Shown: positions 1 to 29,191 of the stretch, in pieces
Layout: each line of letters starts with the position of its first letter
How positions within the stretch are numbered: the first letter of the stretch is position 1
NCBI GenBank assembly: GCA_020425085.1
Contig: JAGQRW010000002.1
Span: 1 to 34,324 of the forward strand
Reading direction: 5' to 3'
DNA length: 34,324 nucleotides
Source: Paracoccaceae bacterium
Lineage (GTDB): Bacteria > Pseudomonadota > Alphaproteobacteria > Rhodobacterales > Rhodobacteraceae
The notes under the pieces: model-generated
Database searches by the model: none
What the model was told of the DNA's origin: nothing
What the model saw: only the letters and a program-made list of their open reading frames with translations
Position numbers and translations under genes: made by a program

Positions 1-545
1 TAGCCAATGCCGTGCAGCGTGTGCAGCAGCGGTGTGTCAAACGGTTTGTCGATCTTGGCCCGCAGGCGGCTGATATGGGTTTCGACAACACTGGTCTTGG
101 GGTCAAAGTTGATATCCCAGACCGACTCAAGAAGCATACTGCGCGTCTGCACCCGACCCGGTCGTTCCATCAGATGCTTTAAAAGCAGAAATTCACGCGG
201 CAACAGGTTGATTTCCTGTCCGTCCCGAACAGCAGGACGAATGATCAGATCAAGGGTCAGATCACCAATTTGCAAACTGGTGGTTTCTTCGCTCAGGGCT
301 GGGCGGCGGGCCAGCGCATGGATACGTGCAGACAATTCGCCAAGTGAAAATGGCTTGACCAATGACTGGCCGTCGAGTTCGGGCATCATCCGGTCGATCA
401 CATAGTGGTCATGAATTTTCAAACTCGCCTGCACCAGCGCATCGCGTCCGCTCGTCACATGTTTGACACTATGCCCTTCAGATTTGAGACCAGTAGAAAT
501 GCAGTTGCCAGTTTCTGTATCATCTTCGACAAGCAGTATTTTCAT
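1..545 (-). CDS. OmpR-family response regulator, receiver domain internally deleted; 3' end outside window
   Basis: DNA-binding response regulator of a two-component system. The start reads MKILLVEDD, with the acidic pocket at residues 7-9 and the phospho-acceptor aspartate at about residue 51 (VIDRMMPELDG). Immediately afterwards the sequence jumps in frame from DGQSLV to KPFS, so the conserved lysine follows only four residues after the DG. In PhoB of this same window 43 residues lie between the equivalent points, so about 39 residues are missing: strand beta4 with the Ser/Thr switch, alpha4 and neighbours. The C-terminal winged helix (GDLTLDL to LHGIGY) is intact and reaches the window edge a few residues short of the expected end. 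The frame is open throughout. It may bind DNA but probably cannot switch normally. The partner kinase would lie to the left, outside the window. The PepSY pseudogene upstream suggests the whole system is decaying. Confidence 0.85.
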   Translation of the reverse strand, partial: MKILLVEDDTETGNCISTGLKSEGHSVKHVTSGRDALVQASLKIHDHYVIDRMMPELDGQSLVKPFSLGELSARIHALARRPALSEETTSLQIGDLTLDLIIRPAVRDGQEINLLPREFLLLKHLMERPGRVQTRSMLLESVWDINFDPKTSVVETHISRLRAKIDKPFDTPLLHTLHGIG

Positions 546-632
546 TTTCCCTCACTCTGGTGCCTGTGCTGGCTGGGATAACCATAGCCCGGGCTGGTCG
601 GAACCGGTCTGGAATCAGGCGTATTTCCAATC

Positions 633-1034
633 TTAGTCGGTTTCCGCCTCAGAATTTTCCGACCTGTCCATGTTGTCGTGCTCATCGCCATCATTTTCAT
701 CGCCCATAGATGCAACTGGACCATTTGCCAGCAGCGCCCCCGAGGTTGCATCCACCTTGACCATTGAGGCCGTGCCGTCCTTGGCGATGACCACGGCTTC
801 GTAAACGCCAGTGTTGTTTTCATCATTGAACCCAACCTAGGCCAGTTGCCCCGGCACCGCGCCAGTTGCAACTTCTCCAGCCTTGGCCAGTAAAATCTTG
901 GCCGCCTGGAACAGCTGGATTTCAGCTTTCATTGAGGTGTCTACGGAACCCTTTGCTTAGTTTGCGTAGGCAAAGGAAGCTGCGGACAGGGCCAAGGAAG
1001 TTGCGAGGATTGGAATAAGGGTGGTGTGTTTCAT
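633..1034 (-). pseudogene. PepSY-domain secreted protein, two in-frame stops
   Basis: A 134-codon frame starts with a Sec-type signal peptide (MKHTTLIPILATSLALSAAS) and continues into a single PepSY-like repeat (VYEAVVIAKDGTASMVKVDA) and an acidic tail. Two stops interrupt it in frame: TAA at codon 26 (959-957), right at the signal-peptide end, and TAG at codon 66 (839-837). Both need only one base change to become a sense codon, and the frame on both sides stays coherent. That points to recent inactivation rather than a misread frame. PepSY proteins of this size are periplasmic and often accompany two-component systems, as here with the response regulator just downstream. Sequencing error is an alternative but would need two separate errors. 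Confidence 0.8.
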
Positions 1035-16341: not shown

Positions 16342-17138
16342 CTAACCTTGAACAGCGGCGGGATAGCCTGCCTGTTCGGAGGCATGGGCGATGGCCGCGT
16401 AGCGAATAATGGTGTCCTGGCCCGGAATATGCGGAAAGCCCCGGAAATTCGCCGCATTGGCGAACTTGCTCTGACAGGTTTCAAAGCGCTTGTCGCAACC
16501 GGCGGAAATGTCAAACGTGCTGCCGGTCTCGACCGGGCGCACCGGGGCCTCGAGCAAAGTGATCATCACCTCGGCACCTGAACTTGCATGGCTCAGCACC
16601 TCGGCCCTGCGCCCGGCATTGGTACCGGTGAGCCAGGATAAGGTTCCAAGCGCAAACCAGCCCTCGGCAAAGCCCGAAAGACCCGAAACCGCAAAGCCGC
16701 GATCACCGGTGAGCGATACCACGGTACCGCTTGCCTTGAAGGCTGGATCGTTCAAATTGACCCCGCAGCGCGCATCCCCCAATGCCGCATCGCAACTCGC
16801 CTGAAACGTCCGCCCGACGGTCTGGCCGAGCACATGGGCGAGGGAGCGCATCTCGGCCACGAAATGCAGCCGCCCGCGCCGGATCTGGCCGATGGCGCCC
16901 CGGCGCAGCAGGGTCCGTTGGCTGGTGTCAGCCCAGTTGACCCGCCAGATTTCCACCGCGGCATTGTCCCAGCAGCCATCGAGAATATCGGTTTCGGTGA
17001 TGGTGTCGGAGGTCAGCACGCCGGTCGCCTCCTGCGCATCGACCGCGAGGTCGGAGCCGGAGCGGATTTCCGAGGCGGTGAAGCCGGACCCGGGTTCAAA
17101 CACCGAGCCGTCAAACCTCAGCGCCCGGTCATGGTCGG
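16342..17138 (-). pseudogene. DUF2163 phage tail protein, C-terminal part (split by inversion)
   Basis: About 265 codons of the DUF2163/GTA gp13-type protein, beginning at DHDRALRFDG and continuing through VEIWRVNWADTSQRTLLRRG, ASCDAALGDARCGVNLNDP and FANAANFRGFPHIPGQD to a natural-looking stop. The conserved cysteines of the family are present. The N-terminal 35 residues are not here: upstream of codon ACC-GAC the frame runs into antisense tape-measure sequence and gives a nonsense leader. The missing start is found on the opposite strand at 18050-18155, and joining the two gives an unbroken frame. Family role: distal tail / tip assembly next to the NlpC/P60 peptidase, which is missing to the left. 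Confidence 0.9.
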
Positions 17139-17424
17139 TGGCGGCACCGCGCCGCAACGCATGGTGCCAGCTATGGCTTTTGCTGCTGCACCGCGCATGC
17201 ATTCCGGTGGCTGGGCGGGTCTAAAGCCTGACGAAGTGCCCGCGATCCTCCAGAAAGGCGAGCGGGTGCTGTCGCGGCGTGAAACCGCACAATACGGCGC
17301 CGGCAGTGCTCAAAACATCACCATCAACATCCAGACCCGCGATGCCGAGAGCTTTCGCCAGTCGCGCACCCAGGTCTCGGCCGACATTGCCCGGGCGGTC
17401 GCCATGGGCCGGAGGGGCATGTGA
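17139..17424 (+). pseudogene. Tape-measure protein, C-terminal part (inverted)
   Basis: Plus-strand codons starting inside GGTAPQRMVPAMAFAAAPRM and continuing HSGGWAGLKPDEVPAILQKG, ERVLSRRETAQYG and IARAVAMGRRGM to a stop at 17424. This is the usual C-terminal end of Rhodobacterales phage tape-measure proteins. The N-terminal body is on the minus strand at 18156-19189. As it stands this fragment has no start of its own. Its stop overlaps the GTG of the DUF2460 gene, as expected in the original operon. Confidence 0.88.
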
Positions 17425-18053
17425 GCATGGCGTTTCACGAAATCCGCTTTCCCGACAATATCAGCCGCGGTGCGCGCGGAGGTCCCGAGCGGCGCACCCA
17501 GATCGTCGAACTGGCTTCGGGTGATGAAGAACGCAATGCCAGCTGGGCCAACTCGCGCCGCCGTTATGATGCGGCCTATGGCGTGCGCCGGGCCGATGAT
17601 CTGGCAGCGGTCGTTGCCTTCTTTGAAGCCCGCAACGGGCGTCTCTGCGGGTTTCGCTGGAAAGACTGGGGTGATTACAAATCCTGCCTGCCATCGGGCA
17701 TGCCAGCAGCGAACGATCAGGCCATCGGCACCGGCGACGGGGCGGCTACGGTGTTTCAACTGATAAAGGCCTATGCATCGGGCGCACAGACATGGGCCCG
17801 CTCCATCACCAAGCCGGTGGCCGGAACCGTTACGGTGGCGATCGACGGAATCGTTCAGGCCTCGGGCTGGTCCGCGGACACCACAACCGGTCTTGTCACC
17901 TTTATCACCGCTCCGGCCAGCGGCACCAGTATCACCGCAGGTTTCGAGTTCGACGTGCCGGTGCGATTTGACACCGACCGGCTCGACGTCACCCACGACA
18001 TCGAGCGGCTCGGCTCGATCACTTCCATTCCCCTTCTGGAGATCCGCCGGTGA
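17421..18053 (+). CDS. DUF2460 phage tail protein (GTA gp12-like)
   Basis: A 210-residue protein of the DUF2460 family (TIGR02217 type): FHEIRFPDNISRGARGGPER, then SRRRYDAAYGVRRADDLAAV, FRWKDWGDYKS and the C-terminal IERLGSITSIPLLEIR. In gene transfer agents and related siphophages it lies between tape measure and DUF2163 and belongs to the distal tail. The gene is intact although the segment carrying it is inverted, so it now lacks the operon promoter and is probably silent. The start could be GTG at 17421 (GGAGG five bases upstream) or ATG at 17427. The stop overlaps the GTG start of DUF2163 (GTGA). Confidence 0.9.
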   Translation: MSMAFHEIRFPDNISRGARGGPERRTQIVELASGDEERNASWANSRRRYDAAYGVRRADDLAAVVAFFEARNGRLCGFRWKDWGDYKSCLPSGMPAANDQAIGTGDGAATVFQLIKAYASGAQTWARSITKPVAGTVTVAIDGIVQASGWSADTTTGLVTFITAPASGTSITAGFEFDVPVRFDTDRLDVTHDIERLGSITSIPLLEIRR

Positions 18054-18155
18054 AATCCTTTCCGCCATCCCTGCAGGGCCATCTCGACAGTGGCACAACC
18101 ACGCTCGCCTGGTGCTGGCGTCTTAGTCGCAAAGACGGCGAGGTGTTCGGTTTCA
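18050..18155 (+). pseudogene. DUF2163 phage tail protein, N-terminal part (inverted)
   Basis: A GTG start overlaps the DUF2460 stop and codes for MKSFPPSLQGHLDSGTTTLA, WCWRLSRKDGEVFGF, the typical beginning of DUF2163 proteins. After GFS the frame runs into antisense tape-measure DNA (HAACMQYRRK) and stops at 18220. The continuation DHDRALRFDG is on the minus strand at 17138 and below. Confidence 0.88.
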
Positions 18156-19189
18156 GCCATGCCGCCTGCATGCAATACCGGCGCAAAGATGCTGCCGAGA
18201 TTGCCGAGCGCCCCTGAGAGCGCATTGGCCAGTGGTCCGAGAATGAACTTTCGCGTCGACAGTTTCGCCATGTCGGCCAGTAATGACGTCACCAGTGATC
18301 TAAAATCCAGCTTGCCGGTTTTTACGAACTCGCCAATGGCATTTTCGGCCGAAGTGAAGGCGCCGACCAGGGCGTTGCCGATATCACCGCCAATGTCGCG
18401 CGCCCTGGCGGCATAATCGGCAAGGCTGGCCACGGCGGCCTCCCATCCGGTTTTGGCGATCTCGGCAGCATCTGCGGCGGCACCGCCCGCGTTGGTAGCG
18501 GCATTACCGGCTTGGTTCAGCGATTTCCCGAAGCGATCGGCATCCTGCTCGGAGACCACAACCCCGAAAGCAAGCACGTCCGCGGTCGCCTGTCGCAGGC
18601 TCAAAGTGTCGATGCGTGACATGGCGATCGAGCCTTCCTCGCCAAAAAGCTGACCGGCGACTGCCGCGCGTTCGGCGGCGGGCACAAACTTCTCGATGGC
18701 GGCGTTGATGGCGCCGACCCGCTGGTCGAGCGGCAAGGCGATCAGGTCGCTGGCCGAGAGCCCCAGCCGTTCCAGCGCATCGGCGGCGGGTCCGGATCCT
18801 GCGGCCGCCTGGCTGAGCCGCCTCGTCAGATCCTTGGTCGCCTGTTCAATGCCGGACATGGAGACGCCCGCCAGTTCACCCGCCCGCTCCAGCGTCTGGA
18901 TCGAGGCGACCGTCGTGCCGAGCGATTGCGCCAGCTTGGCCTGCGCATCCACCGTCTGAAGACCAGACCGGATCATCGCAGCACCCGCTGCTGCCAGCGC
19001 CACGGTTGCGCCAACCGCAGCGGCCCGGGCGCGGCGCGCGAATGCCGCCATGCGCGTATTTGCCATTTCCATCTCGGAGGACAAGCGCCCGAAACCCCGC
19101 GCTCCGGCGTCGCCAATACCTTCCAGCTCGGCACGCACCTGGCGGCCGCCTTCGGCCACCAGCCGGACGGATACACGTTTTTCTGTCAT
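18156..19189 (-). pseudogene. Tape-measure protein, N-terminal part (split by inversion)
   Basis: About 345 codons from MTEKRVSVRLVAEGGRQVRA to IFAPVLHAGGMA. Features are an N-terminal coiled region (LEGIGDAGARGFGRLSSEME), a membrane-like helix (AAVGATVALAAAGAAMI), alpha-rich repeats (RLSQAAAGSGPAADALERLG), and GALGNLGSIFAPVLHAGG near the end. This is the minor tail / tape-measure protein that sets tail length and helps DNA delivery; at about 440 residues when rejoined it would be a short one. After GGMA the frame crosses the inversion breakpoint into antisense sequence (ETEHLAVFATK) and continues meaninglessly for about 100 codons. The start follows the higBA module; the two are divergent, 86 bases apart. 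Confidence 0.9.
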
Positions 19190-19247
19190 GGTGACATATC
19201 CCGATTGTTGATTGGCGGTGCGAGCGAGGTCGTTCCGCTCTTGCAAT

Positions 19248-19275: not shown

Positions 19276-19557
19276 ATGATTATCAGCACGAAGGGCAAAC
19301 GCGCGGCGAACGCGGTCAGCGACCAGTTCGGCAAGGGCTTCCCGACCGATCTGGTCAAGCGAACGCGGGCGATACTGTCTGCTCTGGACGCTGCTGTGGT
19401 CCTCGAGGATCTTCGGTTTCCGCCGGGAAACCACCTCGAGGGGCTCAAGGGCGACCGCGCCGGGCAGCATTCGGTGCGCATAAGCGGCCAGTGGCGCATC
19501 TGCTTCGTGTGGACCGAACAGGGACCGGCCGACGTTGAGATCGTCGATTACCATTGA
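19276..19557 (+). CDS. higB: HigB-type toxin (RelE superfamily mRNA interferase)
   Basis: A 93-residue protein of the HigB family. The family end signature is clear: LRFPPGNHLEGLKGDRAGQH, SVRISGQWRICFVW and DVEIVDYH. These toxins cut mRNA at the ribosome and stop translation until the antitoxin binds them. Toxin-first order with the antitoxin 12 bases downstream is typical of higBA. The module lies in plus orientation between the tape measure and the tail chaperone genes, both minus, so it was probably inserted there as cargo. No damage is visible, in contrast to the neighbouring tail genes. Confidence 0.92.
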   Translation: MIISTKGKRAANAVSDQFGKGFPTDLVKRTRAILSALDAAVVLEDLRFPPGNHLEGLKGDRAGQHSVRISGQWRICFVWTEQGPADVEIVDYH

Positions 19558-19568
19558 AAGGACGCGAC

Positions 19569-19859
19569 ATGACATTGATGACAAACCCCTCGCATCCGGG
19601 CGAGGTCCTGAAGGAGCTTTACCTCGGGCCGCTCGATCTGAGCGCCATCGGGTTATCAAAGCGCCTGCACGTGCCGCGCACCCGGGTTGAGCGGCTGGTG
19701 AAGGGTGAGACGGCGCTCACCGCGGATACGGCGATGCGGCTCGCGACCTTCTTCGGCACGACGCCCGAATACTGGATGAACCTGCAGCGGGCCTGGGACC
19801 TCGCGCGGGCGCGGGACACGGTCGATGTGTCAGACATCACGCCCCTCGCGGCTGCCTGA
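19569..19859 (+). CDS. higA: HigA-type antitoxin (HTH, XRE family)
   Basis: A 96-residue antitoxin/transcription factor. The family start (NPSHPGEVLKE) and the helix-turn-helix (GLSKRLHVPRTRVERLVKGE) are followed by the conserved TALTADTAMRLATFFGTTPE and YWMNLQ. It neutralises HigB and probably represses the operon at the palindrome upstream. I chose MTLMTN as start because GAAAGGACG lies in front; an upstream in-frame ATG (19554) overlaps higB. The last 30 bases overlap, in antisense, the end of the tail gene on the minus strand, so the insertion reached into that gene's 3' end or replaced its original tail. Confidence 0.92.
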   Translation: MTLMTNPSHPGEVLKELYLGPLDLSAIGLSKRLHVPRTRVERLVKGETALTADTAMRLATFFGTTPEYWMNLQRAWDLARARDTVDVSDITPLAAA

Positions 19860-20075
19860 CACCATTTCCTCGTTCAGCTTCTTTACCATCACCGCCTCGA
19901 TCCCGGGCAGCAGTTCAGCGGCAATCATGGTGTCGATGCCGAGGGCCTGTGCCAGCGCCAGAGCCGCGCCCATATCCCAGCCCAGGACGGCGCCCGGGGC
20001 CAGGCGCAGCTGGCCACCAAGGCGGCCGACCAGATCCCAGACCTGCCAGCCCTCGAACGTGACGGGCCGGTTCAG
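19830..20075 (-). CDS. Small phage tail protein, second chaperone-type frame (DUF7697-like)
   Basis: An 81-codon frame reading NRPVTFEGWQVWDLVGRLGG, QLRLAPGAVLGWDMGAALAL and IAAELLPGIEAVMVKKLNEE. Small proteins of this kind follow the tail assembly chaperone gene in Rhodobacterales phages. No ATG, GTG or TTG precedes the conserved part: the codon before NRPV is CTG (20075-20073), which overlaps the TGA of the upstream gene in the -1 frame. It may start at CTG, be made by a -1 frameshift from the upstream gene, or have lost its start. Its 3' end overlaps the end of higA on the other strand by 30 bases. Family name is from memory. Confidence 0.6.
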   Translation of the reverse strand: MNRPVTFEGWQVWDLVGRLGGQLRLAPGAVLGWDMGAALALAQALGIDTMIAAELLPGIEAVMVKKLNEEMVSGSREGRDV

Positions 20076-20509
20076 CCGCGCCGGGCAATCTTGGCAGGTT
20101 TCCTGGCAGGCTTCACAGTAGCGATCGCCCCCGCCGAAGGACCATTCGGCAAGGGCGCGGAGACGTTTTTTTCCGCGTCCAGGATCAGGCTGCGCGCAAC
20201 GTATCCGGTCTGGAACGCCTCAAACACCGGCCAGACTTCCAGCAGAGCATTGATGCCATCGGGGGAAACCGGCACATCGTTGCCGGCATCATCACTGACG
20301 CCTTCCCAATCCAGCACGGCGCGGCGGGCGACGGCCTTTGCCATGGCGAGGGCCAGTTCTTCCGGGGTGGCGGTGTCGGGCATGGCCTCGATAACCGGAT
20401 CGGCGCGGGCCGAGACCATCAGGGCGGTGGTCAATGGTGCCACCAACAGGCGCAGCCCAGGGGCCAACTCCAGCCATTCAGGGGCGGCGGTAAGGTTCAG
20501 TCTGATCAT
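20072..20509 (-). CDS. Phage tail assembly chaperone
   Basis: A 145-residue protein: MIRLNLTAAPEWLELAPGLR followed by a helical region (PVIEAMPDTATPEELALAMA), LDWEGVSDDAGN, ALLEVWPVFEAFQTGYV and a basic Lys/Arg/Ala/Pro tail (TVKPARKPAKIARRG). Position between tail tube and tape measure, plus the typical sequence VLDWEGV, fits the gpG-like chaperone that coats the tape measure during tail assembly. The start ATG lies three bases after the tail-tube stop. The end overlaps the next small frame, the arrangement used in many phages for frameshifted chaperone pairs, though I see no classic slippery heptamer. Confidence 0.75.
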   Translation of the reverse strand: MIRLNLTAAPEWLELAPGLRLLVAPLTTALMVSARADPVIEAMPDTATPEELALAMAKAVARRAVLDWEGVSDDAGNDVPVSPDGINALLEVWPVFEAFQTGYVARSLILDAEKNVSAPLPNGPSAGAIATVKPARKPAKIARRG

Positions 20510-20511
20510 GT

Positions 20512-20933
20512 CTAATAACTCGCAATGCTGTTGGTGAGGACGGCGGTGCACATGCGCGCAGGGCTGGCAGCTTTGGCGGCTTGCCAGTCAAAGCTGGCCT
20601 GCACGCCCTGTGGCCCGGCGATCTCTATGCGCGGGATCGGCAGATAGGCGTGGTGCCGCTGGTGGTGGGTGCGCCAAAGGCCGCCTTCAGCCAGTAGCCG
20701 AACGCCTCGACATCAATCGGCACCACGACTTCGCCATCGGCGGTGACCGCATCCTTGATCGGGGCCAGGGGATCGCGGCCATAGCCCAGCAGTTCGGATT
20801 CCAGCAGCGGCTGTTCCGCGCCCAGCGTTGCCCGGGCGAAGGGCATCAATTTGAAGCCGCTGACCGGCGGCGTGCCGTAAACCGTCTCAAAGCCGAGCGC
20901 CATTTGCGCCCGCGCGCCTTGTGCACGTGCCAT
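20512..20933 (-). pseudogene. Phage tail tube protein, internally deleted and frameshifted
   Basis: The start (MARAQGARAQMALGFETVYG, TPPVSGFKLMPFARATLG, VVVPIDVEAFGYWLKAAFGA) is a normal tail-tube N-terminus, but after about 95 residues the frame ends in ICRSRA and a stop. In another frame the natural C-terminus continues at once: YLPIPRIEIAGPQGVQ, ASFDWQAAKAASPARMCTAV and LTNSIASY with its stop at 20512. Tail-tube proteins of this type are about 300 residues long, so roughly 150-200 residues are deleted and the junction (around 20650) is out of frame. A tail cannot be built from this. The gene lies in its normal place between tail terminator and chaperone. Confidence 0.85.
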
Positions 20934-20957: not shown

Positions 20958-21380
20958 TCAGGCCAGGGGGCCGGTGGTGGTGTAATGCAGAACGACGGTG
21001 ATTACCGCCGCCTTCAGCGCGGCAGCGCCTTCGACCGGCAGATCGACTGAGGCCGGGGCTTCGGGTTCGACCCAGTCGCAGAGCCCGCCAAGCGTGCGGT
21101 CATCTTCAAGCGCGCTGCCGATGCTTGCGATCAGGGTGTCGAAGGCACTGGCCCGGTTATTCGCGGCCTGGACGACCACCTCCAGCTCGGCGCGGTGCTG
21201 GTAGTGATAGCGCAAGGGCGACAGCGTCACCTCGGGTTCTCCCGGCTGGCCATCTCGCAGGATGATCAGTCCCGCTGCTGGGATCCGCTCGGGCAGCACC
21301 TCGTCGCGTAGCACCGTGGCGGAAAGGGTTTGCAGCCGCGCGAGGAACGCGGCGAGGATGGTCTCAAAGGTGGTGGGCAT
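20958..21380 (-). CDS. Phage tail terminator / minor tail protein
   Basis: A 140-residue protein (MPTTFETILAAFLARLQTLS, VLRDEVLPERIPAAGLIILR, YHYQHRAELEVVVQ, CDWVEPEAPASVDL). Family members lie directly before the tail-tube gene and are thought to cap the tail (gpU-like) or join it to the head; some databases mislabel them acyl-CoA transferase. The frame is intact. A 24-base gap separates it from the tail tube. To its right the phage gene order is broken by the tetR/DUF1772 insertion. Confidence 0.75.
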   Translation of the reverse strand: MPTTFETILAAFLARLQTLSATVLRDEVLPERIPAAGLIILRDGQPGEPEVTLSPLRYHYQHRAELEVVVQAANNRASAFDTLIASIGSALEDDRTLGGLCDWVEPEAPASVDLPVEGAAALKAAVITVVLHYTTTGPLA

Positions 21381-21523: not shown

Positions 21524-22168
21524 CTAATCAAGAAGAAGATTCCTGAGGCTATCCGCGAGCCACTGGGCATAAGCCGGACTCGCGCATTTTTCGACCCGAT
21601 TAATCAGAAGGAATAGTTCGGGACTTGCTAGGCGCCACAGTATGGTCCCGGCTTCCCCGGCATCCAATCCTCCCTTGAGCGGTCCATTTTGCAGGAGCGT
21701 TGCGGCGAACCATTCAAGGTTTGTGCGCCGACCCTGATGGAAGCGGGAATAAAGCCTCGCCATCTCTGGTTCCGTTCCGGCGGCTGTTCTTGCTACATCC
21801 ATTAATGGCGCAACACGTGACAGGATCGCCGTAATGTCCTGGGCAAAGAGTTCTATCTGTTTGCCTTGGTCCGTCTCCCGCTCGATCTGCTTCGGCCTGT
21901 CTTGTTCTATAAGCGGCAGCCCCGGGTTGTCACCGCGTACAGCCTGACTCACCAGCTCCTGAAGCAGCGCCGTCTTCGTACCAAAAACACTATAGACGGT
22001 CTCGTTTGAAACTCCTGCCGCAGCAGCGATTTTCGCGATTGTTGTCTTCGCCCAGCCGAGTGAAATGAATAACCGCCGCGCCGCCAAAATCACGTCTTCG
22101 CGCGTGTTCGCGGCCTGTTTGGCCCGCTTTCGTGAATGATAGGGTCGCTTTTCTTGCTTTACTTTCAT
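21524..22168 (-). CDS. TetR-family transcriptional regulator
   Basis: A 214-residue repressor-type protein. The N-terminal helix-turn-helix is clear: TREDVILAARRLFISLGWAK, TTIAKIAAAAGVSNETVYSV, FGTKTALLQELV. The C-terminal ligand domain is helical and not specific. It is divergent from a DUF1772 membrane-protein gene, with two inverted repeats in the 94-base gap, so it probably represses both. Base composition is lower in GC than the surrounding tail genes and the gene is not part of any phage module, so it is cargo placed between tail terminator and DUF6441 genes. The inducer is unknown. Confidence 0.9.
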   Translation of the reverse strand: MKVKQEKRPYHSRKRAKQAANTREDVILAARRLFISLGWAKTTIAKIAAAAGVSNETVYSVFGTKTALLQELVSQAVRGDNPGLPLIEQDRPKQIERETDQGKQIELFAQDITAILSRVAPLMDVARTAAGTEPEMARLYSRFHQGRRTNLEWFAATLLQNGPLKGGLDAGEAGTILWRLASPELFLLINRVEKCASPAYAQWLADSLRNLLLD

Positions 22169-22191
22169 CTCTTTTTGATACAGTATTACCG

Positions 22192-22235
22192 TATTGAATA
22201 CAATATCTACCTACCGAAATATTCTTGGTAGGTAG
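22192..22235. promoter_or_regulatory. Two inverted repeats in the tetR/DUF1772 divergent promoter
   Basis: First repeat: TATTG-AATA-CAATA (22192-22205). Second: CTACCTACC (22207-22215) and GGTAGGTAG (22227-22235), a perfect 9-bp pair with an 11-base centre. Both lie between the divergent genes, the usual place of a TetR operator. The second could also form a hairpin at the start of the DUF1772 mRNA. Which one is bound cannot be told. Confidence 0.75.
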
Positions 22236-22262
22236 CCCGCAGAAAATGAAAAGGAGCTTAGG

Positions 22263-22736
22263 ATGTACGGGCTGATCCTATCTTTGCAGTTTGCCGCCAG
22301 CCTTATCCTCGCGATGGTGGCCGGAAGCACTTTTGGAATATGGCGCGGATACAATCCGACCACCTATTCAGCCGCGACCTTCGTCGAAATGCATCAGGGC
22401 GCTGTCGGCGGCCTGAATGTCCTTCTACCGGGAATGGCCTTGGCGGCCATGCTCTGCACTATTGCGCTTGCTTGGCTAGCCTACGGCAGGGGCCCAGCAT
22501 TCCAACTTTATGCCGGTGCCCTTGTGTTTATGGTCGCGGCTGGTATTGTCACGCGGTTCCTGAACCAGCCGATCAACGCGATAGTAATGACCTGGACCGT
22601 TGAAACACTGCCAGCCAACTGGGCTCAGATTCGTGATACATGGTGGACTTGGCACCTGGTACGCACCGGTACTTCAGTCCTCGCAATGGCGTTTCTGCTT
22701 GCCGCTGTAATCGTCAACAAGCCGGTGTTGAAGTGA
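22263..22736 (+). CDS. DUF1772 membrane protein
   Basis: A 157-residue protein with four membrane helices (residues about 3-27, 52-76, 82-101 and 132-153) and the family's conserved segments: TTYSAATFVEMHQGAVGGLN and FLNQPINAIVMTW, then WAQIRDTWWTWHLVRT. DUF1772 proteins are small membrane proteins of unknown function, often next to TetR regulators as here. A strong ribosome site (AAGGAG) stands before the ATG. A hairpin with a T-run follows 36 bases after the stop, so tetR and this gene form a self-contained unit within the phage tail region. Confidence 0.85.
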   Translation: MYGLILSLQFAASLILAMVAGSTFGIWRGYNPTTYSAATFVEMHQGAVGGLNVLLPGMALAAMLCTIALAWLAYGRGPAFQLYAGALVFMVAAGIVTRFLNQPINAIVMTWTVETLPANWAQIRDTWWTWHLVRTGTSVLAMAFLLAAVIVNKPVLK

Positions 22737-22974: not shown

Positions 22975-23607
22975 TCAGCGTAATTGCCCCTCCACCCACT
23001 TCGCCACGATCAACCCCGGCACGCCATCCACCGCCCGCTCTGCATCCCGCGCCAGATTCAGCCGCTTGCGCAACCTGACCTGCGGCACCAGCAGGAAGAT
23101 CGGCACGGTTGCCATGCCGCGTCCGGTTTTTGACCGTGATGCCACAGCGCGACCCTTGGTGTTCAGCCGCCCTTCGGCCACCAGCAGGCTCGGCCCCCGG
23201 CGGCGATAGACGAAACGCAAACGCAACCCGGTGCGGCGTTCCCATTCCACGGGGGTAATGCGCCCGCCCTTTAAGCTTTTGCCTGCAGCTGGCGTGGGGA
23301 TCGCCAGCCAGAAGCCGTTTTTCGATCGGATCAGCGGCCCGGTATCATGGGCGCCGATGATCACCGGCGCTTTCGACCAGACCAGTGCCGCCGCATTCAG
23401 GCTGTCACCGGATTTCGGGAAGCTGGTGATCCGGATGCTGTTGCCAAGACGGGTACCGAGGCCCGCGCCGGTGATTTGCGTTCGCCAGGCGGATTTGAGG
23501 CCATTGCCGGCCTCACGCATCGCCGCCGATACCGCCTTTTCCCCGGCGGCGATCTCCGCCTGCATCATGGCGACGATGTCGGGGTTGATGTCGATCTTCA
23601 GCTTCAT
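22975..23607 (-). CDS. Phage head-tail / tail completion protein (DUF6441-like)
   Basis: A 210-residue basic protein: MKLKIDINPDIVAMMQAEIA, SAWRTQITGAGLGTRL, NAAALVWSKAPVIIGAHDTG and SRSKTGRGMATVPIFLLVPQ. I match it to the DUF6441 family of Rhodobacterales phages (family number from memory). Position between head-tail joining protein and tail terminator, and the length, fit a neck or tail-completion role like lambda gpZ. The start overlaps the stop of the upstream gene by four bases. The frame is intact. Confidence 0.72.
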   Translation of the reverse strand: MKLKIDINPDIVAMMQAEIAAGEKAVSAAMREAGNGLKSAWRTQITGAGLGTRLGNSIRITSFPKSGDSLNAAALVWSKAPVIIGAHDTGPLIRSKNGFWLAIPTPAAGKSLKGGRITPVEWERRTGLRLRFVYRRRGPSLLVAEGRLNTKGRAVASRSKTGRGMATVPIFLLVPQVRLRKRLNLARDAERAVDGVPGLIVAKWVEGQLR

Positions 23608-26820: not shown

Positions 26821-27777
26821 TCAAAGAGATCCATCTGTGCCGGGTCCTCCGGCGCATCCGTCGGCCGCCAGATCCACGGGCCCGAGGCCATGGGCAGCCG
26901 CGAGAGTGCGCCACGCATGTGCTGCCGCCAGAGGGTGAACTCCATTGCCGAGCAGGCGCAGAGCGCGTGCCCGATGGGCCAGCCCATCAGCCATCCGACG
27001 AACAGCGGATTGAGCCTGCGTCTTGAGCGGGCCTTCAGGATCCGCCTTGATGCGACCCGCCCATGCGAGGCAATCATCAAAGCCCAGAGCGGGCGCGAGA
27101 TCGGGGCGTGATGCGAGGATCGCGCTCCATGTATCCCGATCATCGGGGCCGGGCGGGTGAAGCCCTGTTCCGCCCGGTAGTGCAGCAGGTCCATTCGCGA
27201 TTTGCCATCGGCGCGGATCACGCTGGCCGCGCTGCTGCCCTTCCAGTTCTGGGCGGCTGGCGTGGGCCAGAATGAAGATCCGCAACCGCTGATGCGGCGC
27301 GCCAACCTCTGCCGCGCTGAACAGGCCTGCCGCAGGCGTGTAACCCAAGCCCCAAAGCTCTCGCAGCACGGTCTCAAGGCCGAGGCTGACGTGACCGGCG
27401 ACGTTCTCGAGGAACACCCATTCGGGGGTGCATTCCCGGATGATCCGGGCGACCTCTGGCCACAGGTGGCGGGGATCGTCGGCACCGCCGCGCTTTCCGG
27501 CGGCGCTGAAGGGCTGGCAGGGGTATCCGGCGAGGACGGTATCGAAAGCACCGCGGAACGGCCGGGCATCGAAGCTGCGCAAATCATCCCAGATCGGTGC
27601 CGGGGCAAAATACCCCGCGCGCTGGGCGGTGATGAGCACAGTTCGGGGCCAGTCCTCCCATTCGACCAAGGCGCGCGTGTGATATCCGGGCTCGGCCAGC
27701 ATGAGGCCCAGATCAAGGCCTCCGCCGCCTGCGCAGAGGGACAATCCGTGCCGGGGAGGTAACACCAGGCCATTCAC
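26821..27777 (-). CDS. DNA cytosine-5 methyltransferase (orphan, phage-borne)
   Basis: A 318-residue Dcm-type enzyme. Motif I is LSLCAGGGGLDLGL, the catalytic cysteine is Cys87 in GYPCQPFSAAGKR (motif IV), motif VI is VFLENVAGH, motif VIII QRLRIF, and motifs IX-X are RMADGLAHRARALRLLGNGV and HPLAAAHAWRTL. The target-recognition region between them is short. It transfers methyl from SAM to cytosine in a specific DNA sequence. No restriction enzyme is nearby, so it probably shields phage DNA from host restriction. I chose GTG 27777, which overlaps the upstream stop (GTGA) behind GGGGAG; an ATG 21 codons earlier would overlap that gene by 67 bases. Confidence 0.92.
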   Translation of the reverse strand: MNGLVLPPRHGLSLCAGGGGLDLGLMLAEPGYHTRALVEWEDWPRTVLITAQRAGYFAPAPIWDDLRSFDARPFRGAFDTVLAGYPCQPFSAAGKRGGADDPRHLWPEVARIIRECTPEWVFLENVAGHVSLGLETVLRELWGLGYTPAAGLFSAAEVGAPHQRLRIFILAHASRPELEGQQRGQRDPRRWQIANGPAALPGGTGLHPPGPDDRDTWSAILASRPDLAPALGFDDCLAWAGRIKADPEGPLKTQAQSAVRRMADGLAHRARALRLLGNGVHPLAAAHAWRTLAAAHGLGPVDLAADGCAGGPGTDGSL

Positions 27778-28802
27778 CGCACTCCCCGCATTCGGAGCCG
27801 TTCCGGCGTGACCAGCCCGCGGGCCAGCATCAATCGGCACATGGCGCTGCTGATCATGCGGTTGGGCAGGTATTCGCCGGAGTTTACCTTGGCGGCATAG
27901 AATGCCGCCAGCTTATCGTCGCTGGGCCGGGGCTTGTCGTCGCGCTTGCGGGTTTGCTTGGATTTCTTGCTGTTAGTGCTTGCTGCAGCCGCCTGCGCAT
28001 TGCGCTGGGCGGCGCATTCCATGAACCGATCCAGCGCTTTCGGTCCATCAGGCGGGTTCGGATGATCGCGCCGGGTTTCGGTGGCGACCTCGATGATCCG
28101 ATCCTCAGACAACCCGAGATCATCAATCCACCGGTGCACATGGGTCCGGGCTGGCCAGCCCTGCCACCAGGCGGGCAGCAGGCTGGCGTTGGCGGCAAAG
28201 CCCAGCGCAATCAACAGCTCTGCAAAGAACCGATCAAAATCTGATTCTCGCGCTTGCGCGTCCTCCTCCTCCTTTACTGGTTTACTTAGTGGTTCTCTTA
28301 CAAGGTTAGTGTCCGAATTCCGGACACGGCTTTCGGCATTTTCCGGACACGGGTCGGCGCAAAATCCGGACACGGCTTTGGCTGGATTGCCGTGTGTGAT
28401 TTCCGGACACGGCTCGGCCTGATCTGAGGCGATGGGTGATTTTTCCGACGCGGTTTCAAGCTCATGGTTGAGGGTCAAAGCCCCGTGTCCGGTTGCCGAA
28501 CACGGATCAGGATCATCTGGCGTGAAGCCCGGCTCAAACCCCAGGATGTAGCGGGTTGGCATCTGGCGCTTGGTGACCGGATGGAGGCATGGAATACGCC
28601 GCAGGAGGCCCGCCGCTTCAAGATGGCCAAGATGGTCGTTCAGGGTGGAGCGACTGATTTCGCAATCATCGGCCAGTCGCGCCTGCGACGGAAAGCAGCC
28701 GTAATCCGGATTGTAGCGATCACAGAGATGCCAGAGCACAATTTTGGTCGTGGGTTTCAACCCGCGCTGCTGGATGGCCCAGTTGGTGGCATCATGGCTC
28801 AT
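27774..28802 (-). CDS. Phage replication protein with N-terminal winged helix
   Basis: A 342-residue protein. Residues 8-70 form a winged helix (GLKPTTKIVLWHLCDRY, CFPSQARLADDCEISRSTLN, DHLGHLEAAGLLRRI), residues about 99-165 a low-complexity linker with repeated Pro-Cys-Pro-Glu units, and the C-terminal part is helical (SDFDRFFAELLIALGFAA, WIDDLGLSEDRIIEVATE) with a basic segment (SKKSKQTRKRDDKPR). The plan is like lambda O: DNA-binding head, linker encoded by iterons, C-terminal helicase-loader contact. The DNA of the linker holds the repeats described separately. The start overlaps the VRR-NUC stop (ATGA). No helicase gene is in the window, so host DnaB is presumably used. Confidence 0.78.
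   Translation of the reverse strand: MSHDATNWAIQQRGLKPTTKIVLWHLCDRYNPDYGCFPSQARLADDCEISRSTLNDHLGHLEAAGLLRRIPCLHPVTKRQMPTRYILGFEPGFTPDDPDPCSATGHGALTLNHELETASEKSPIASDQAEPCPEITHGNPAKAVSGFCADPCPENAESRVRNSDTNLVREPLSKPVKEEEDAQARESDFDRFFAELLIALGFAANASLLPAWWQGWPARTHVHRWIDDLGLSEDRIIEVATETRRDHPNPPDGPKALDRFMECAAQRNAQAAAASTNSKKSKQTRKRDDKPRPSDDKLAAFYAAKVNSGEYLPNRMISSAMCRLMLARGLVTPERLRMRGVR
28309..28505. repeat. Iteron-like repeats, candidate phage replication origin
   Basis: Four perfect direct copies of TCCGGACACGG at 28319, 28342, 28365 and 28402 (steps of 23, 23 and 37 bases). Around them are degenerate or inverted copies: GTGTCCG at 28309 (forming a 7-bp palindrome with the first copy), TCCGACGCGG near 28444, CCGTGTCCGG at 28483 (inverted, ten of eleven bases) and GCCGAACACGG at 28495. 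All lie within the replication gene, beside a comparatively AT-richer stretch (28270-28310). Confidence 0.75.
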
Positions 28803-29191
28803 GGCGCTGCCCTCAGCACTGGGCGCACCCGGCTGGCGAAGCCTTGATCGCCCAAAGCGCCCAGCGCATCGTCGACCGAACGCACCAGCGCCCATCCAAA
28901 GCCCTGCGCGCAAACCGTGTCGCGAAACACCTCCTGCGATTTGCGCAACCGGCCGGTCTGGCTTTTGACCTCTAGAAACAGCACCTGGCCTTCCGACATC
29001 ACGACCAGATCGGCAAAACCGGGATGCACGCCCATGCCGACCAGAATGGCCTGGCGCCTGGCACCGCGCGGCCCGGCCTCTGTCACCTCATTGGCGCAAT
29101 GATGCACGATGGCGTCGCGGGGCAGGGCGATGCGTAAAGCCTGGACGATGGCGCGCTGGGCATCAGCCTCGGGAGTATTGCGACGTTTCAT
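28799..29191 (-). CDS. VRR-NUC domain nuclease
   Basis: A 130-residue protein consisting almost only of the VRR-NUC fold of PD-(D/E)XK type: the acidic residue in GFADLVVM, the EXK element in VLFLEVKSQTG, and a following SQEVFRD helix. Stand-alone phage VRR-NUC proteins are structure-specific nucleases thought to resolve branched DNA. The start ATG overlaps the stop of the upstream gene by four bases and its own stop overlaps the start of the replication gene, so it belongs tightly to the early operon. Confidence 0.85.
   Translation of the reverse strand: MKRRNTPEADAQRAIVQALRIALPRDAIVHHCANEVTEAGPRGARRQAILVGMGVHPGFADLVVMSEGQVLFLEVKSQTGRLRKSQEVFRDTVCAQGFGWALVRSVDDALGALGDQGFASRVRPVLRAAP

What the first reader, a model, noticed from the sequence alone, without database searches (positions are those of the whole stretch)
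17139..18155. Exact 1,017-bp inversion splits two tail genes; turning it back restores both
Three tail pieces (tape-measure C-terminus, DUF2460, DUF2163 N-terminus) lie in plus orientation inside a minus-strand tail operon. Re-inverting between 17138/17139 and 18155/18156 joins GGMA to GGTAPQRMVPAM (tape measure) and VFGF to TDHDRALRFDG (DUF2163), both in frame, and restores the family gene order. Only a 2-bp TG match is shared at the ends, which argues against a classic invertase system with long inverted repeats. It may be an illegitimate inversion in a decaying prophage, a rare switch with short sites, or an assembly error. If both orientations occur in a population, it would be an on/off switch for tail production.
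Basis: partly seen in the sequence, partly recalled or inferred. Interest (0 to 1): 0.85.

Follow-up and report, generated by a model that had tools for sequence, protein, structure and literature searches.

The report
Flipped segment in a decaying prophage
A 1,017-base piece of a broken-down phage left in a bacterial genome has been flipped end for end, cutting two tail genes in half; it looks like a one-off accident in a relic that has also lost other essential genes, not a working genetic switch.

Summary
Observation confirmed. Searched as separate pieces, the tape measure and DUF2163 (baseplate-hub) genes are each split between strands, with DUF2460 whole between them. Of 157 distinct related sequences, 156 are collinear and 1 is not assessable. 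Where the pieces could be aligned, relatives have one codon between them at both breaks (110 and 100 of 118 loci; the rest not measurable), so no base was gained or lost. The switch reading is not supported: the ends share 2 bp, which 18% of random pairs do, without site similarity or dyad, and neither recombinase family searched has a match on this contig. The prophage is defective anyway: the tube gene has a frameshifting deletion of about 520 bp, tail-tip genes are missing from the window, and the relatives' terminase and portal families have no match in the genome. Surviving pieces have no stops and no overall excess of amino-acid change, suggesting recent damage. Best explanation: a non-programmed inversion in a young prophage remnant. 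Misassembly remains possible without reads, and how the ends were joined is open.

The parts
17139..18155 (.). inverted segment, 1,017 bp, TG...CA at its ends (2-bp ambiguity)
17140..17424 (+). C-terminal piece of the tape measure gene (94 aa), inverted
   Evidence: phrog_20862 positions 613-697; 76% and 79% identical to the ends of the tape measures of L131 and L132
17427..18053 (+). DUF2460 gene, whole, inverted
   Evidence: PF09343 2e-91; start placed as in RcSwan
18050..18155 (+). N-terminal piece of the DUF2163 / baseplate hub gene, inverted
   Evidence: PF09931 positions 1-31
16342..17138 (-). C-terminal piece of the DUF2163 / baseplate hub gene, in the original orientation; homology to relatives ends at about 16375-16394, 4-10 residues before their C-terminus
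   Evidence: PF09931 positions 33-160, PF09356
18156..19189 (-). N-terminal piece of the tape measure; about 273 residues fewer than L131 and L132 between 18521 and 18424, in frame
20515..20933 (-). tail tube gene with a frameshifting deletion of about 520 bp at 20655 (residues 94-266 of 313 missing)
20072..20551 (-). tail assembly chaperone
   Evidence: phrog_313
20958..21380 (-). tail terminator
   Evidence: phrog_4204
22975..23607 (-). DUF6441 gene
   Evidence: PF20039
23604..23918 (-). head-tail attachment gene
   Evidence: PF05354
23928..24965 (-). major capsid protein E gene
   Evidence: PF03864; 89-90% identical to L131 and L132
25402..26817 (-). head maturation protease (S49)
   Evidence: PF01343, phrog_53
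27774..28913 (-). replication-initiation O-like gene; no relative of the L231 portal or terminase in the window
   Evidence: phrog_345

Best explanation
A recently broken prophage, whose tail module is related to that of Rhodobacter phages such as RcSwan, lost several blocks of DNA and also underwent one base-exact inversion of 1,017 bp. The inversion cut the tape measure and the baseplate-hub (DUF2163) genes and left DUF2460 whole on the wrong strand. Shown: the inversion relative to all 156 assessable distinct relatives, its exactness, the lack of recombination sites, the other lesions, and the absence of decay by point mutation. Inferred: that it was a non-programmed, non-homologous rejoining of a 1-kb segment (broken ends, topoisomerase strand exchange or replication slippage), tolerated because the prophage was already, or was soon to be, non-functional; the order of the lesions is not known.
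For: Pieces complementary in profile and phase. 0 inverted of 156 assessable distinct relatives; 3 nt between pieces in every locus where it could be measured: 110 and 100 of 118, 79 and 76 of 80. Other lesions: tube frameshift, shortened tape measure, tail-tip genes not in the window, no relatives of the L231 terminase and portal in the window and no PF05876 or PF05136 match in the genome. Microhomology and site similarity at chance level. No stop in the 10 pieces and genes tested. Changes on the window's lineage 30 non-synonymous / 113 synonymous against 47 / 129 on L131's (outgroup L134, eight pieces; the held stretch of L134 stops short of the capsid). A review describes defective prophages as zones of deletions and inversions (PMC6379469, passages).
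Against: In a Salmonella study (PMC3411829, abstract and passages) 5 of 7 tested spontaneous inversions were confirmed, those with 12 bp or more of inverted homology; the ones with 7 and 9 bp were not. Candidates were filtered by overlap length first, so 2-bp inversions were not really tested there. The genome has no Ku match, so Ku-dependent end joining cannot be invoked. Tape-measure length varies between phages (631 aa in RcSwan, 710-714 in L132 and L131), so that shortening may be natural. In single pieces the window's lineage has more amino-acid changes than L131's (DUF2163 N piece 3 against 1). The order of the lesions is unknown. No reads were seen.
Confidence: 0.75

Rival explanations
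1. Assembly or scaffolding error: the 1-kb piece was placed the wrong way round in the contig and the real molecule is collinear.
For: Every assessable relative is collinear; a 2-bp overlap is within what random joining gives, and in PMC3411829 the short-overlap junctions tested were not confirmed.
Against: No Ns in the window; no repeat longer than 11 bp within the window touches the breaks, which is ordinary for it; a genome search with 16800-18500 found only itself and a diverged set of tail genes (66% identical over 451 bases, 79% over 56); two separate wrong joins, each base-exact, would be needed.
Confidence: 0.13
2. A programmed switch: a site-specific recombinase flips the segment and turns tail production on and off.
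For: The inversion is conservative to the base; the overlap is 2 bp, the length of a serine recombinase crossover core (recalled); two serine recombinase genes lie elsewhere in the genome, one of them with a sub-cutoff match to the master DNA invertase Mpi family (64.6 bits, cut-off 272).
Against: No inverted repeat at the ends, no site similarity, no dyad; no PF00239 or PF00589 match on this contig; no inverted relative; tube broken, portal and terminase families without a match, so orientation cannot control tail production.
Confidence: 0.03
3. A low-specificity serine recombinase acting in trans made a one-time inversion using only a 2-bp core.
For: Base-exact reciprocal product with a matching dinucleotide; a small 188-aa serine recombinase on C19 whose family matches are all below cut-off, among them XisF and the invertase Mpi; no Ku.
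Against: A match of 2 bp or longer arises in 17.6% of random pairs; no link between that gene and this locus was found or looked for beyond its neighbours.
Confidence: 0.06

Closest known systems
Cryptic (grounded) prophages with deletions and rearrangements (PMC6379469, passages read)
   Same: Lost essential genes, several structural lesions, including an inversion.
   Different: The passages seen attribute most inversions to homologous recombination between prophages, IS elements and RNA operons; here only 2 bp are shared.
PinQ inversion of the e14 P segment (PMC12529663, abstract and passages)
   Same: A 1-2 kb inversion in a cryptic prophage with both ends inside genes.
   Different: That one has 16-bp inverted repeats, a known recombinase and makes new chimeric genes; here there are no repeats and the genes are cut.
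Invertons (PMC11892184, passages)
   Same: Inversion of a DNA segment.
   Different: Invertons have 10-40 nt inverted repeats; none here.
Spontaneous rearrangements in Salmonella chemostats (PMC3411829, abstract and passages)
   Same: Unselected inversion of chromosomal DNA.
   Different: Confirmed inversions there had 12 bp or more of inverted homology; shorter overlaps were mostly filtered out before testing.
Rhodobacter phage RcSwan tail module (OP009286.1)
   Same: Same gene order from head-tail attachment to DUF2163; DUF2460 71.9% identical.
   Different: RcSwan is collinear, with a whole tube gene and peptidase and TIM-barrel genes after DUF2163.

Membership tests
Hin/Gin/Pin-type invertible switch | matching inverted sites at both ends | tested here: not met
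   identity 8 of 26 around the breaks, random pairs reach this in 38%; no dyad; longest repeats within the window touching the breaks 11 and 10 bp, typical of 60 random points
Hin/Gin/Pin-type invertible switch | recombinase gene at the locus | tested here: not met
   2 PF00239 and 5 PF00589 matches in the genome, none on C4
Hin/Gin/Pin-type invertible switch | both orientations in a population | not testable with these tools
   no reads; among relatives 0 of 156 assessable distinct sequences inverted
Inverton | 10-40 nt inverted repeats flanking the segment | tested here: not met
   definition from PMC11892184
Defective (cryptic) prophage | essential phage genes missing or broken | tested here: met
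   tube, tape measure and hub broken, tail-tip genes not in the window, portal and terminase families without a genome match
Defective (cryptic) prophage | no phage produced on induction | not testable with these tools
   no experiment
Spontaneous inversion at short inverted homology | inverted homology of 12 bp or more at the ends | tested here: not met
   2 bp; threshold from 7 tested inversions in PMC3411829
RcSwan-like tail module | collinear order attachment, minor tail genes, tube, chaperone, tape measure, DUF2460, DUF2163, peptidase, tip | tested here: inconclusive
   same genes and order except the inverted segment, the missing genes and cargo genes

The most novel reading that the evidence does not exclude
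A low-specificity recombinase or topoisomerase in this Ku-less bacterium can flip about 1 kb of DNA cleanly using a 2-bp match, so that base-exact inversions without inverted repeats, which repeat-based searches would miss, occur in prophages.
Probability: 0.08. Interest if true: 0.6.

Novelty: new member of a known kind. Interest (0 to 1): 0.2.

Why it matters
It is a clean example of prophage breakdown caught early: the lesions found are structural and the remaining codons look untouched. It also shows that a base-exact inversion need not be a switch. Its one puzzling point is how a reciprocal, loss-free inversion formed with 2 bp of homology in a genome without a Ku match.

Tried and rejected
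Switch hypothesis: rejected on sites, recombinases, relatives and the other lesions. Natural gene ends at these points: rejected, relatives run through both points with one codon between the pieces. Repeat-driven misassembly: no supporting repeat within the window and no near-identical second copy. End joining by Ku: no Ku match (the control search found Ku in 1 of 14 named genomes). The same junctions in IMG/VR: both present junction 20-mers gave 0 hits, but control 20-mers from the window gave 2 and 0 hits and the 2 are other phages, 76-77% identical in DUF2460 and collinear, so this absence says little. Exact ends of the tube and tape-measure deletions could not be read because relatives are too diverged. 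The missing tail-tip genes were looked for in the window only, not elsewhere in the genome. Pairing DUF2460 and DUF2163 hits over the family (capped lists) was only looked over by eye and is not counted. Host flanks in the genus: the oxidoreductase has good matches in 2 of 9 other genomes and the right flank in 0 of 9, so no empty insertion site was established. Literature: 7 searches; I saw no description of this locus in those listings, which are short and not exhaustive.

Full report
What is there. The window is one whole contig (C4, 34,324 bases) of a 20-contig, 3.34-Mb genome. The best phage records for its DUF2460 are Rhodobacter phages, and the titles of the 80 kept genome-contig loci (of 481) are mostly Rhodobacteraceae or genera that I recall as such. 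Around 16.3-30.1 kb lies a phage module read on the minus strand: a replication gene, protease, capsid E, head-tail attachment, DUF6441, tail terminator, tube, chaperone, tape measure, DUF2460 and DUF2163. To its left are an oxidoreductase gene and phosphate-uptake genes, to its right LysR and TRAP-type solute-binding genes.

The inversion. I searched the pieces apart and did not build a re-inverted sequence. The hub domain PF09931 is divided into positions 1-31 on the plus strand (18050-18154) and 33-160 on the minus strand (16345-17136). Tape measure phrog_20862 is divided into 392-605 (minus, 18158-19246) and 613-697 (plus, 17140-17421). DUF2460 is whole on plus. The split codons fit in phase at both breaks.

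Comparison with relatives. Of 128 loci held, 3 were the window itself and 5 were second views of a contig; of the remaining 120, 118 were collinear, 2 could not be assessed (L012, L027) and none was inverted. Between the tape-measure pieces the gap was 3 nt in 110 of 118 and not measurable in 8; between the DUF2163 pieces it was 3 nt in 100 of 118 and not measurable in 18 (matches ending up to 8 residues short of a piece's end were extrapolated). The 80 genome-contig loci were all collinear, with 3-nt gaps in 79 and 76. These sets share contigs. Counted as distinct DUF2460 sequences there were 158, of which one (L224) is the window itself; of the other 157, which include the second, diverged set in the same genome, 156 were collinear and 1 not assessable, and 134 had both flanking pieces. 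The inversion is therefore derived and, so far, private to this genome, and it gained or lost no base.

Is it a switch? The two ends share TG/CA only. Random position pairs in the window share 2 bp or more in 17.6% of cases. Site-to-site identity is at chance for six window sizes (P 0.27-0.58), and neither site has dyad symmetry (P 0.14-0.95). The longest repeats within the window touching the breaks are 11 and 10 bp; 60 random points gave 8-13. The genome holds 2 serine and 5 tyrosine recombinase matches, none on this contig. One of the serine recombinases, on C19, has a sub-cutoff match to an invertase family; it lies among polysaccharide genes and nothing ties it to this locus.

The prophage is defective. 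Against relatives from G005 (L131, L132), the tube gene lacks residues 94-266 of 313 and is out of frame at 20655; the tape measure is about 273 residues shorter, in frame, which may be natural since lengths vary (631 aa in RcSwan); DUF2163 homology stops 4-10 residues before the relatives' end, and nothing beyond it is found in the window, including the 1,685-aa protein that follows in L131. The terminase (GpA) and portal of L231 have no match in the window, and their Pfam families have none in the genome (each was found in 3 of 14 control genomes). Orientation of the 1-kb segment cannot therefore control tail production.

Age. The ten pieces and genes tested have no stop codon. On codons comparable with L131 and outgroup L134 the window's lineage has 30 non-synonymous and 113 synonymous changes against 47 and 129 on the L131 lineage; other pairings gave 30/111 against 43/151 (L132, L134), 36/112 against 42/133 (L131, L133) and 35/161 against 38/126 (L131, L136). 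Single pieces scatter both ways. Overall there is no sign of loosening, so the damage looks recent compared with the split from relatives.

Mechanism. I favour a one-off, non-programmed inversion. Against this stands a Salmonella study in which the 5 confirmed of 7 tested spontaneous inversions had 12 bp or more of inverted homology (PMC3411829, abstract and passages), though it filtered out short overlaps beforehand; and this genome has no Ku match. The means of joining is thus open: topoisomerase exchange, replication slippage, or a low-specificity recombinase are possible and untested. Assembly error is less likely for want of repeats and Ns, but only reads can exclude it.

Noticed in passing
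window 19276-19859 (+): A HigB-like toxin and an HTH antitoxin gene (PF05015, PF01381) lie opposite to the tail genes, between tape measure and chaperone; relative L132 has no insert there.
   Followed up: partly
window 21524-22736: A TetR regulator and an anthrone-oxygenase-like gene sit between tail terminator and DUF6441; L131 has about 1.7 kb without blastn match to them at the same place, so this looks like a cargo site.
   Followed up: partly
e.g. L020, L083, L086, L091 (between DUF2460 and DUF2163): Several relatives carry roughly 0.9-2.4 kb of extra DNA between DUF2460 and DUF2163 (not counted), a possible cargo site inside the tail module.
   Followed up: no
L004 (G000:C12, about 279.6-281.2 kb): The same genome has a second, collinear, diverged DUF2460/DUF2163 set, perhaps a gene transfer agent cluster (name recalled, not tested).
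   Followed up: no
L230:6911-7474 (-), contig C19: A 188-aa serine recombinase whose NCBIfam matches (XisF, invertase Mpi and others) are all below cut-off lies among polysaccharide genes.
   Followed up: partly
window 16.3-25 kb: The damage found in the prophage is structural (deletions, one inversion); the ten genes and pieces tested have no stops.
   Followed up: yes
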